Below, piece after piece: positions 7 to 59,288 of a stretch of DNA of 64,000 nt. This DNA comes from Leucobacter sp. cx-328 (GTDB lineage: Bacteria > Actinomycetota > Actinomycetes > Actinomycetales > Microbacteriaceae). The stretch's first letter is position 1. Every line of letters begins with the position of its first letter. A model generated the notes under the pieces. It worked only from the letters and a program-made list of their open reading frames with translations. It ran no database searches and was not told where the DNA came from. The stretch spans positions 62,001-126,000 of the forward strand of contig NZ_JACVMX010000005.1 of the NCBI RefSeq assembly GCF_014530035.1. The letters are read 5' to 3'. The position numbers and the translations under genes were made by a program.

Positions 7-606
7 ATGCAGCCGCTGCGCCTGCACGAGCGCACGCTACCAACGGCGCCTGAACTCGCTCCGCTCCTTCCCGGCGGCGCACTCCGCGAAGGGGGCATCT
101 ACTCGGTCTCCGGCTCTTGGCAGCTCGCGCTTACTTTCCTCGCCCCCGTGTCACAAAGTGGCGCGTGGTGCGGCATTATTGGCTGTCCAGATCTCAGTGC
201 TGAAGCCGCTGCCGAGGTGGGCATTGCTCTTGACCGCTGCATCATCGTGCCAAATCCCGGCAATCGCACGACCGCGGTCGCCGACATGCTGAGCGGCACA
301 GTCACTGCGCTCCTCACGAAGTTTCCCGCCGAGGTCCCACCACACGACGCAGAACACATCGCAGCCAGACTTCGCGAGCAGGGCTCTGCGCTCATTGTCA
401 TGGGAGATTGGCGTCGCACCGATGCCGAGATTCGAGTGACAGATTCCCGCTGGCTTGGGCTAGACACTGGCCGCGGTGCACTCCGCGACCGCGAGTTGAC
501 CGTTCGCAGCAATGACCACCGCGGCCCTCGCACGCACAAGATCCGATTCGCTGGCGGCCACCTGGCCCCGCAGCAATCACCAGTCCGCTTGGTGGCAACG
601 CGATGA
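7..606 (+). CDS. imuA: ImuA-like RecA-fold accessory protein of the DnaE2 mutasome (5' end may be outside the window)
   Basis: The gene encodes about 199 residues and overlaps the start of imuB by 4 bases (ATGA). It is assigned mainly by position: in actinobacteria a small RecA-like ImuA protein precedes imuB and dnaE2. The N-terminal half (GGALREGGIYSVSG, then a hydrophobic stretch) resembles the degenerate nucleotide-binding core of ImuA/SulA-type proteins, but I see no intact Walker A motif. The frame is open to the left edge of the window, so the true start may lie further upstream. In this system ImuA and ImuB are thought to help recruit DnaE2 for error-prone translesion synthesis after DNA damage. 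Any LexA box that controls the operon would be outside the window. Confidence 0.7.
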   Translation: MQPLRLHERTLPTAPELAPLLPGGALREGGIYSVSGSWQLALTFLAPVSQSGAWCGIIGCPDLSAEAAAEVGIALDRCIIVPNPGNRTTAVADMLSGTVTALLTKFPAEVPPHDAEHIAARLREQGSALIVMGDWRRTDAEIRVTDSRWLGLDTGRGALRDRELTVRSNDHRGPRTHKIRFAGGHLAPQQSPVRLVATR

Positions 607-19416: not shown

Positions 19417-19499
19417 ATGTGCCGCGGGATGGAGCAGTTCGGTAGCTCGCCGGGCTCATAACCCGGAGGTCGTAGGTTCAAATCCTGCTCCCGCAACTA
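19417..19499 (+). repeat. 83-bp direct repeat, copy 1 (contains initiator tRNA)
   Basis: This segment is identical to 19720-19802. It covers the whole tRNA plus 6 bases before and 3 after, so the duplication is tight around the gene. Sequences outside differ, including the two terminators. Confidence 0.9.
19423..19496 (+). tRNA. Initiator tRNA-fMet (anticodon CAT), copy 1
   Basis: The 74-nt gene folds as a cloverleaf. Initiator features are visible: a C1:A72 mismatch at the end of the acceptor stem (CGCGGGA against TCCCGCA) and three G:C pairs at the base of the anticodon stem (GGG CTCATAA CCC, CAT at 19457-19459). The T arm has GGTTCAAATCC. The genome reads CTA after the discriminator A, so CCA is not encoded. 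Confidence 0.95.
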
Positions 19500-19719: not shown

Positions 19720-19802
19720 ATGTGCCGCGGGATGGAGCAGTTCGGTAGCTCGCCGGGCTCATAACCCGGAGGTCGTAGGTTCAAATCCTGCTCCCGCAAC
19801 TA
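19720..19802 (+). repeat. 83-bp direct repeat, copy 2 (contains initiator tRNA)
   Basis: Identical to 19417-19499 over its full length; see that entry. The 220 bases between the copies contain the first terminator and no gene that I can support. Confidence 0.9.
19726..19799 (+). tRNA. Initiator tRNA-fMet (anticodon CAT), copy 2
   Basis: The gene is base-for-base identical to the copy at 19423-19496, with the same C1:A72 mismatch and GGG/CCC anticodon stem. It again lacks an encoded CCA. Confidence 0.95.
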
Positions 19803-19971: not shown

Positions 19972-20067
19972 AGACACTCCGACGAAACACCGTGGTTCCC
20001 GAGAACACCTATTTCTACGCGCTAAAACCATCAATTTCGGGAGAATGTACCCGTTTCGCGGGCTTGA
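19972..20067. repeat. Palindromic intergenic repeat R1 (diverged copy)
   Basis: This is the most diverged of five related elements of about 96 bp. The right half is clear: centre TTTCTACGCGCTAAAA, then TTTCGGGAGAA and the end TCGCGGGCTTGA. The left end (ACTCCGACGAAAC) matches only loosely. It lies between the second tRNA terminator and the 3' end of the UPF0182 gene. About 120 bases before it (19850-19971) hold nothing I can identify. Confidence 0.65.
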
Positions 20068-25946: not shown

Positions 25947-25999
25947 ACGTAGCGAGGTCCCGCCAGTTGTGGATAACAATTGGCGGGACCTCGCTACGT
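25947..25999 (+). terminator. Very strong hairpin after the DUF2342 gene
   Basis: Two perfect 19-base arms (25947-25965 and 25981-25999; ACGTAGCGAGGTCCCGCCA and its complement) are extended by a G:T wobble and TTGT/ACAA, leaving the loop GGATA. The next gene begins only a few bases later, so the hairpin may insulate it. Confidence 0.85.
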
Positions 26000-41849: not shown

Positions 41850-41945
41850 CCACCCCGTCGAAACTGGCACTTCCCCGCGAGAACCCTAGTTTCAGCGCGC
41901 TGAAAGGGGTCATCTCAGCAGAAACTCCCCGTTTCGCGGGGTTGA
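41850..41945. repeat. Palindromic intergenic repeat R2
   Basis: It is a member of the R1-R5 family: left end CACCCCGTCGAAAC, centre TTTCAGCGCGCTGAAA (a perfect palindrome), and right end GTTTCGCGGGGTTGA. It lies between the 3' ends of rhlE and the Lrp gene. Confidence 0.8.
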
Positions 41946-46791: not shown

Positions 46792-46887
46792 TCAACCCCG
46801 CGAGAACGTCCCTTTCTCCCGAAAACCCGAGTTTCTACACGTAGAAACGGGTCATCTCGAGAGAAACGGGCCATCTCGCGGGGTTGA
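46792..46887. repeat. Palindromic intergenic repeat R3 (best-formed copy)
   Basis: The element is 96 bp with perfect 12-bp terminal inverted repeats, TCAACCCCGCGA and TCGCGGGGTTGA. Inside lie GAGAACGTCCCTTTCTC paired roughly with GAGAAACGGGCCATCTC, and a centre ACCCGAGTTTCTAC/GTAGAAACGGGT. The entire element can fold into one long hairpin with small bulges. It lies between the convergent ABC ATPase and response-regulator genes. Confidence 0.9.
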
Positions 46888-53125: not shown

Positions 53126-53221
53126 TCAACCCCTCGAGACGGGCCCTTTCTCTCGAGATGACCACTTTCATGCATCAGAAAGTGCTTGTTTCGAGAGAAT
53201 CGCCCTGTTTCGAGGGGTTGA
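53126..53221. repeat. Palindromic intergenic repeat R4
   Basis: The element is 96 bp with perfect terminal repeats TCAACCCCTCGA and TCGAGGGGTTGA. Inside are TTTCTCTCGA and TTTCGAGAGAA, and a centre ACTTTCATGCATCAGAAAGT. Compared with R3, both arms have changed together (CGCGA/TCGCG to CTCGA/TCGAG), which keeps base pairing. It lies between the 3' ends of pepP and the HNH-like gene. Confidence 0.9.
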
Positions 53222-53303: not shown

Positions 53304-54032
53304 TTAGGAATTGTTGTGGATATACAAATGCGGCAGCTCTTCTCGAAGTCGCAAATACACTCGGTCCCTTGCAGAAAAGGTGATTCCCAATCGATTCGCA
53401 GAATTCCACCAAATAAGTGCTCCGATAGGCCCATCCTGAATCTCAGCGATAAAAACTTCTAGCTCCCCATCAGAAGGATTTTCGGGGCTGACCATGCTAT
53501 TCGCCCAATGCGAATGACCACTGGTGCCTTCCTTTCTCAACTGGTCCATGATCGAAAAGTCTTTGTACAAAACCAATGTGGCATTGGGCATTGACTCTGA
53601 GCCATTTAGAAAATCAATCAGGTCTTTGGGGACGTCGAACCCTCGCTCATCGATTCGACAAGCGAAATTCTTCACGTAATAACGGGCAAGGTTTGCCGAG
53701 GTGTGCGGTTCTCCAGCGAGTACATGGGACATTTGAAAGCTTGTCCGTGCACGAAAGAAGTCGGGCCTTTCGCGCACAAACGTTACGAACTGATCGTATG
53801 CTCGGTCGAATGGCTGGCTTCGCGCGCCATTACATGTTTTACACATGGTTTTGGGGAAGAGCATCAGCGGTGATTTCGGGCCATGGAATTTGGACGGACG
53901 TTCGTTCGCTAGAACAAGATAATCCGAACCTTTGAACGATTTGCGAAGTTCCGAAGCTTTTACTCGATGCTCTCGAGAGTCAGCGATGGCTCCGCACCAC
54001 CAGCACCGGGGATGAAAATCAGGTTCATTCAC
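53304..54032 (-). CDS. HNH-like zinc-finger protein, AT-rich accessory gene
   Basis: The 242-residue protein begins with CWWCGAIADSREHRVKASELRK and continues LMLFPKTMCKTCNGARSQPFDRAYD, a CxxC...EH...CxxCN arrangement like HNH endonuclease zinc folds. The rest is not recognisable; it contains several aromatic residues and ends without a known domain. Base composition is clearly AT-richer than its neighbours and codon choice differs (many TTT, AAA, AAT), suggesting recent acquisition. It starts with GTG, preceded by GGTGA. It is flanked by repeats R4 and R5. It may be a defence or homing-type nuclease, but this is an inference from the fold only. Confidence 0.65.
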   Translation of the reverse strand: MNEPDFHPRCWWCGAIADSREHRVKASELRKSFKGSDYLVLANERPSKFHGPKSPLMLFPKTMCKTCNGARSQPFDRAYDQFVTFVRERPDFFRARTSFQMSHVLAGEPHTSANLARYYVKNFACRIDERGFDVPKDLIDFLNGSESMPNATLVLYKDFSIMDQLRKEGTSGHSHWANSMVSPENPSDGELEVFIAEIQDGPIGALIWWNSANRLGITFSARDRVYLRLREELPHLYIHNNS

Positions 54033-54221: not shown

Positions 54222-54318
54222 CCAAACCCCTCGAAACCGATAGTTTCTACCGAGATCAGCCCTTTCATGCGCAAGAAAGCCCCCGTCTCGAGAGAACGGG
54301 GGCTTTTCGCGGGGTTGG
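54222..54318. repeat. Palindromic intergenic repeat R5, with an extra half-end
   Basis: The element is about 97 bp: left CAAACCCCTCGAAAC, centre TTTCATGCGCAAGAAA, TCTCGAGAGAA and right end TTTTCGCGGGGTTGG. A second copy of the right terminus (CTTTCGCGGGGTTGGCC) follows at 54334-54350, as if a fragment had been duplicated. It lies between the HNH-like gene and the 3' end of the general stress protein gene. Confidence 0.8.
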
Positions 54319-54380
54319 CCCTGCGGACCGAAGCTTTCGCGGGGTTGGCCGAGGTCAGCGACCAGGGGCCGCGCCGACAA

Positions 54381-59244: not shown

Positions 59245-59288
59245 AAACACAGAACCCCCGCCTCGTTTGAGGCGGGGGTTCTGTGTTT
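59245..59288. terminator. Very strong bidirectional terminator
   Basis: Perfect 20-bp inverted repeat with arms at 59245-59264 and 59269-59288 and a 4-nt loop GTTT. The stem has AAACACAGAA at its base and a CCCCCGCCTC core, and ends in TTT on both strands. It separates the convergent methyltransferase and DUF3117 genes. Confidence 0.93.

What the first reader, a model, noticed from the sequence alone, without database searches (positions are those of the whole stretch)
46792..46887. A family of ~96-bp palindromic intergenic repeats with conserved ends
Five elements (19972-20067, 41850-41945, 46792-46887, 53126-53221, 54222-54318) share size, TCAACCCC/GGGGTTGA-type termini, GAGA/TCTC inner arms and a TTTC-(8 nt)-GAAA centre. 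All lie outside genes, close to gene 3' ends, and three lie between convergent genes. They look like a REP/MITE-like family or a repeated structured RNA or terminator. I know no named family with this pattern.
Basis: seen in the sequence. Interest (0 to 1): 0.85.

Follow-up and report, generated by a model that had tools for sequence, protein, structure and literature searches.

The report
Helically phased palindromic repeats in Leucobacter
Roughly a hundred old, 96-letter, mirror-symmetric DNA elements sit just after genes in this actinobacterium, and their letters repeat in step with the turn of the DNA helix, which suggests places where a protein wraps the chromosome; some relatives keep the same spacing with different letters.

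Summary
The five elements belong to a family of 81 copies seen (about 100 by extrapolation) in a 2.64-Mb genome, Leucobacter by its nearest relatives. All 81 were called intergenic; 70 or 71 of the 75 places found by the gapped search are exactly 96 nt. Anatomy: four 15-bp modules (GARA-N7-YTTC and its reverse complement) with 4-, 8- and 4-bp spacers, CG steps every 19 bp, ends near CCAACCCC/GGGGTTGG. The copies are old: 54 of 81 align across the element in the relative cx-42, where conserved columns changed at 2% and variable ones at 9-13%. Arms do not covary outside the central bases, apart from 16 of 79 near-perfect copies, which speaks against an RNA hairpin as main constraint. A/T content is phased at 10.0-10.5 bp through the core and about 50 bp beyond each end. 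Two other Microbacteriaceae genomes have the same geometry with other letters; there the inner arms do covary. No RAYT gene, Rfam family or transposition footprint was found. Best reading: a 3'-end DNA-wrapping site, most likely for gyrase. No binding was shown; terminator and selfish-repeat readings stay open.

The parts
19974..20067 (.). element 1, degenerate 94-nt copy, after two tRNA genes, in a tandem gap
   Evidence: (C9:81974-82067)
41850..41945 (.). element 2, between convergent genes (DEAD-box helicase and AsnC/Lrp-type regulator)
   Evidence: cx-42 ortholog
46792..46887 (.). element 3, between convergent genes (ABC ATPase and LuxR-type response regulator); four 15-bp modules at 46802-46816, 46821-46835, 46844-46858, 46863-46877
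   Evidence: cx-42 ortholog
53126..53221 (.). element 4, after an M24 aminopeptidase gene; near-perfect palindrome (-62.8 kcal/mol as RNA)
   Evidence: cx-42 ortholog
54223..54318 (.). element 5, upstream of nothing but downstream of a YflT-domain gene (minus strand)

Best explanation
The element is a double-stranded DNA site with two-fold symmetry around which a protein wraps the DNA, placed just downstream of genes and above all between convergent genes. Short A/T blocks (GARA, TTTC) about 10 bp apart, separated by G/C-rich words, would put one face of the helix toward a protein surface; CG steps every 19 bp and the dyad centre fix the register, and weaker phasing runs about 50 bp past each end. 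The most likely wrapper is DNA gyrase, held where transcription from both sides piles up positive supercoils, the role proposed for gyrase at REPs in E. coli. Shown: the family, its fixed geometry, constraint on module letters, absence of arm pairing in most Leucobacter copies, helical phasing, 3'-end location. Inferred: that a protein binds, that the DNA is wrapped, that the protein is gyrase, and that supercoil relief is the function.
For: Fixed length and 19-bp register in 81 diverged copies; constrained letters in ortholog pairs; arms vary independently (63 of 79 copies fold no better than arm-swapped chimeras); A/T period 10.0-10.25 bp in the core and in-phase flanks: 50-bp windows starting 0-30 bp outside the core are matched by 0 of 250 control offsets in the own genome, and 0 of 250 for starts of 0-25 bp in cx-42 (the sets are orthologous, not independent); location at 3' ends. 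The E. coli gyrase motif is symmetric, 130 bp, with 10.75-bp phased G/C, and gyrase sites are over-represented in a subset of BIME-2 (PMC6379681, passages).
Against: No binding data. The phased tract (about 200 bp) is longer than the 130-bp gyrase motif, and the letters are far more specific than that motif. In the two Microbacterium-type genomes the inner arms covary (z 6.2) and flank phasing is not significant. Natural copies as a whole fold better than chimeras, although 16 of 79 account for it in the own genome. In two of four offsets of an earlier control the shift test gave low p-values, so I rely.
Confidence: 0.42

Rival explanations
1. Bidirectional 3'-end RNA hairpin: transcribed from either side, the palindrome forms a long stem that ends transcription or protects mRNA ends.
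For: Convergent and 3' location; four of the five window copies fold better than all 200 shuffles of themselves; in the two Microbacterium-type genomes inner words covary, and all five convergent copies of G369 lie 1-24 nt from both stops; natural copies fold better than arm-swapped chimeras.
Against: No covariation of arms in most Leucobacter copies; 95 single changes at arm pairs, 52 breaking and 43 making a pair out of 129, with 4 of 17 double changes going pair to pair; separate terminators before the element at 23 of 62 gene ends; a terminator needs neither 96 bp, nor a 19-bp register, nor phased flanks.
Confidence: 0.22
2. Selfish repeat (REP- or MITE-like) that spread in each lineage and is now decaying.
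For: Dispersed and intergenic; words are shared within a genome and differ between species; several loci lack the element in cx-42.
Against: No Y1_Tnp/RAYT in the genome; no target duplication at the six loci compared, one of which keeps nine bases of the element, a sign of loss; copies as different as column frequencies predict (0.40 against 0.41) but of fixed length; constraint in ortholog pairs. Other transposase families were not searched.
Confidence: 0.16
3. Array of four to eight binding sites for a small dimeric protein (nucleoid occlusion, segregation or other chromosome-organising factor) without wrapping.
For: Dependencies between positions are local, within half-modules; TTTC-NNNN-GARA units resemble half-sites of ParB/Noc-type proteins (recalled, not tested); uneven distribution: 3 of 75 places on the 390-kb contig C7.
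Against: Phasing of bare A/T content beyond the conserved letters is not needed for such sites; no candidate protein was identified.
Confidence: 0.18

Closest known systems
REP/BIME repeats (REPs of many bacteria; E. coli BIME-2)
   Same: Dispersed intergenic palindromes, mainly between convergent and co-directional genes and downstream of coding regions (PMC3733652, abstract and passages); a subset of E. coli BIME-2 is enriched for gyrase cleavage (PMC6379681, passages).
   Different: 96-bp composite of four modules instead of 20-40 bp units; no GTAG/CGTC tag; no RAYT gene in the genome; fixed 19-bp register and phased flanks.
DNA gyrase motif / strong gyrase sites
   Same: Symmetric about a dyad, with about 10-bp phased G/C content extending on both sides; found downstream of genes.
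   Different: Far more letter-specific; about 200 bp phased instead of 130 bp; gyrase binding unknown.
ERIC/IRU elements of enterobacteria (recalled)
   Same: About 100-130 bp imperfect intergenic palindrome in many copies.
   Different: No sequence relation was tested; the module register and helical phasing described here are not, as far as I recall, features of ERIC.
Bidirectional intrinsic terminators
   Same: Hairpin-forming sequence between convergent genes.
   Different: Fixed length, most arms mismatched in Leucobacter, ordinary terminators often present as well.

Membership tests
REP/BIME | palindromic unit of 20-40 bp with a GTAG or CGTC tag at one end (PMC3733652) | tested here: not met
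   96-bp consensus of 77 copies, no such conserved tag
REP/BIME | RAYT (Y1_Tnp) gene in the genome | tested here: not met
   PF01797: no match in the own genome; the control rings in 5 of 14 genomes
REP/BIME | intergenic, mostly convergent or co-directional gaps | tested here: met
   81 of 81 called intergenic; 45 convergent, 30 tandem, 4 divergent, 2 at contig edges
DNA gyrase strong site | symmetric about a dyad with about 10-bp phased G/C content on both sides | tested here: met
   for Leucobacter; not significant for flanks of the Microbacterium-type copies
DNA gyrase strong site | gyrase binding and cleavage at the dyad | not testable with these tools
   needs Topo-Seq, ChIP or in vitro cleavage
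intrinsic terminator / structured RNA | compensatory changes between the arms | tested here: inconclusive
   Leucobacter: absent outside the centre and 16 of 79 near-perfect copies, although the whole-alignment count is above shuffles (73.4% against 70.8%); present in inner arms of the Microbacterium-type copies
intrinsic terminator / structured RNA | known Rfam family | tested here: not met
   window at gathering threshold: only two tRNAs; five relative loci at E 0.5: a tRNA and sub-threshold miRNA models
MITE | target-site duplication and precise empty sites | tested here: not met
   six loci without an alignable element in cx-42, no duplication seen; one keeps nine bases of the element
integron attC site | paired core sites RYYYAAC / GTTRRRY in arrays | not tested
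   looked at by eye only; copies are dispersed, not in arrays

The most novel reading that the evidence does not exclude
A class of DNA-wrapping elements in Microbacteriaceae whose geometry (15-4-15-8-15-4-15, CG every 19 bp, phasing over about 200 bp in Leucobacter) is conserved across genera while the letters are rewritten in each lineage: hard-wired gyrase or nucleosome-like positions at transcript ends, read largely by DNA shape.
Probability: 0.28. Interest if true: 0.88.

Novelty: new variant of a known kind. Interest (0 to 1): 0.7.

Why it matters
If these are wrapping sites, the genome marks where supercoils are taken up at the ends of convergent genes, and gyrase or nucleoid-protein positioning can be tested on about 100 natural replicates in one genome. 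Geometry kept while the letters change, across genera, would be a clean case of a shape-read DNA signal. Even as a plain repeat family I found no description: four searches of an open-access library listed no paper on such elements in these genera; one search listed only 15 of 673 papers, none of which names the family Microbacteriaceae, and most subscription journals are not held.

Tried and rejected
attC-like reading (the GTTGA/TCAAC ends recall attC core sites): dropped after looking by eye, not formally tested. ParB/Noc-like half-sites: recalled, kept only inside a rival. The flank-phasing test by random shifts was replaced by 250 control offsets, because two of four control offsets gave low p-values. 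Automatic centring of the G017 copies failed (5 of 13 placed, wrongly), so no periodicity is claimed for G017; 11 of 13 G025 copies were placed and show a 10-10.25 bp period, but they were found with model R2 and so lean to its pattern.

The column test suggested no arm pairing outside the centre; the chimera test contradicted this, and traced the excess in the own genome to 16 of 79 near-perfect copies (in cx-42 the outer words show the same excess, the inner ones do not; the removal test was not repeated there). One empty site (L053) was first aligned on the wrong strand and redone; the L055 alignment is unclear. The 400-kb background holds none of the 75 places, because I placed the stretches knowing them; it served to count missed weak copies (3, scoring 25.7-41.5 bits, all intergenic), and it overstates the contrast in gene orientation (Fisher test). 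Gene calls come from a simple codon-usage caller of my own, which misses some genes. Two literature searches on terminators and gyrase were used for background only.

Full report
WHAT WAS CHECKED. The five reported elements are real and unlike anything else in the window (52-65 of 70 template positions, at most 38 elsewhere). A covariance model of the five in both orientations (R1) found 75 places in the window's 2.64-Mb genome (150 scored candidates, the cap; 1237 candidates of the first look); 70 or 71 of the 75 are exactly 96 nt. Reading 310,638 bases around them plus the window gave 81 ungapped copies, six of them new. Another 400 kb placed between the known copies gave three weak ones, so the total is near 100 by extrapolation.

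ANATOMY. Consensus of 77 copies: CCAACCCC-G-CGARA-N7-YTTC-TNNC-GARA-N7-TTTC-ATNCGNAT-GAAA-N7-TYTC-GNNA-GAAA-N7-TYTC-G-CGGGGTTGG, that is four 15-bp modules with spacers of 4, 8 and 4 bp, and CG steps at 10/11, 29/30, 48/49, 67/68 and 86/87, exactly 19 bp apart. The module words vary (261 distinct of 316) but fewer are distinct than independent columns would give, and modules of one element do not resemble each other more than modules of different elements. Pairwise identity at variable positions equals what column frequencies give (0.40 against 0.41). These are old copies with a constrained length and frame, not a recent burst.

PLACE. All 81 were called intergenic: 45 between convergent genes, 30 tandem, 4 divergent, 2 at contig edges. 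In the 30 tandem gaps the element lies a median of 76 bp after the upstream stop and never closer than 70 bp to the next start. Background gaps of at least 100 bp are 15 convergent, 91 tandem, 40 divergent in 400 kb, a sample that holds no strong copy and so overstates the contrast.

EVOLUTION. The genus is Leucobacter by its named relatives; the nearest is Leucobacter sp. cx-42, which I take to be G014 because contig C19 has the same length, 91676. I read 64 distinct cx-42 copies. Of the 81 own copies, 41 align across the element in the stretches and 13 more in those. In the 29 of 41 pairs that could be compared column by column, columns conserved in at least 85% of copies changed at about 2%, columns under 65% at 9-13%. 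Indels exist: 26 of the 41 pairs are 96 to 96 nt. Six loci without an alignable cx-42 element were inspected; none shows a target duplication, and one keeps nine bases of the element, a sign of loss.

RNA OR DNA? If the palindrome worked as an RNA hairpin, arms should covary. Column by column they do so only at the centre (46-51; z about 7): variable segments pair at 0.443 against 0.434 expected, and positions 13 and 84 vary independently. Against this, the count over the whole structure exceeds shuffles, 73.4% against 70.8%, 0 of 500, and natural copies fold better than arm-swapped chimeras (-45.9 against -42.2 kcal/mol; also in cx-42). In the own genome a minority explains it: 16 of 79 have six or seven of seven word positions paired in the outer or inner word, and the other 63 fold no better than chimeras (-43.7 against -43.0 +- 1.0). 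Such near-perfect copies may come from quasi-palindrome correction (inference). Of 62 gene ends with an element 40 nt or more away, 23 have a hairpin-plus-T terminator before it; of 40 gene ends with a nearer element, 19 have a match, which can lie inside the element itself.

PHASING. The A/T profile of the core has its main period at 10.0-10.25 bp, and the phasing continues outside. With the amplitude at 250 control offsets as the null, 50-bp windows starting 0-30 bp outside the core are matched by none in the own genome (starts at 40 bp: 1-2 of 250; at 50 bp: 29-43); in cx-42 by none for starts of 0-25 bp, 2-5 of 250 at 30 bp, and over 100 at 40 bp. Both halves of the own set show it (0 of 250 each). 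Filtering out flanks with pieces of the element's words leaves the signal, though weaker. So about 200 bp of DNA, symmetric about a dyad, at the ends of transcription units, is phased, as a wrapping protein would select. The E. coli gyrase motif is symmetric, 130 bp long, with 10.75-bp phased G/C, and gyrase sites are over-represented in a subset of BIME-2 repeats (PMC6379681, passages; that paper also says gyrase attraction downstream of genes is not hard-wired in E. coli). This makes gyrase my first candidate; nothing here shows binding.

RELATIVES. In 54 Leucobacter genomes, own included, R2 matches 16, strongly only the own genome and cx-42. G017 and G025 carry versions with other words (18- and 19-bp units). 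In 299 Microbacteriaceae genomes three besides the own had weak matches. One of them, G366, and Microbacterium arabinogalactanolyticum (G369, reached through L129) hold 13 distinct copies each in what I read, with the same 15-4-15-8-15-4-15 spacing and CG every 19 bp but other letters (GASACCCC words, centre GGACGTCC). There the inner words covary (z 6.2), the outer words do not (z 0.3), and flank phasing is not significant. Of 25 copies whose context was called, 21 were intergenic and 4 fell inside an ORF of my caller, unresolved. L245 and L247 look like the same plan shortened by 10-12 bp at the centre, about one helical turn (by eye). Among 35 named loci scanned with R2, cx-42 gave three full and two partial elements, and L129 gave the weak match followed up here.

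JUDGEMENT. A real and, as far as my searches go, undescribed family. Location and dispersion are REP/BIME-like; size, tag and RAYT tests fail. DNA wrapping accounts for fixed length, 19-bp register, lack of pairing and phasing in Leucobacter.

Noticed in passing
L069:8-1326 (cx-42, next to the ortholog of window 53126): A 420-aa transposase-like ORF (IS30-like by recalled signature, not searched) abuts a half element, as if an insertion sequence had landed in a repeat.
   Followed up: partly
window 53304-54032: A 242-aa minus-strand ORF in a stretch of 47-53% GC between two elements, without Pfam or PADLOC match; cx-42 has different DNA there.
   Followed up: partly
own genome contig C7 (390 kb); G017 C1 from 2.25 Mb round to 0.23 Mb: Elements are unevenly spread: 3 of 75 places on C7, and a 1.37-Mb arc of the G017 chromosome without a match at E up to 1; dnaA lies at 2.01 Mb in G017 and on C6 in the own genome.
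   Followed up: no
window 54319-54360: A second, solitary element end (TTTCGCGGGGTTGG) follows element 5; similar stray ends flank other copies.
   Followed up: no
L058:5978-6073: A copy whose right side repeats the same 19-bp module in tandem, suggesting that modules can be added one at a time.
   Followed up: no
window 25947-25999 and 59245-59288: Two other strong inverted repeats (24-nt arms 96% and 20-nt arms 100% complementary), not of this family.
   Followed up: no
window 19423-19496 and 19726-19799: Two tRNA genes with identical covariance scores just before element 1.
   Followed up: no
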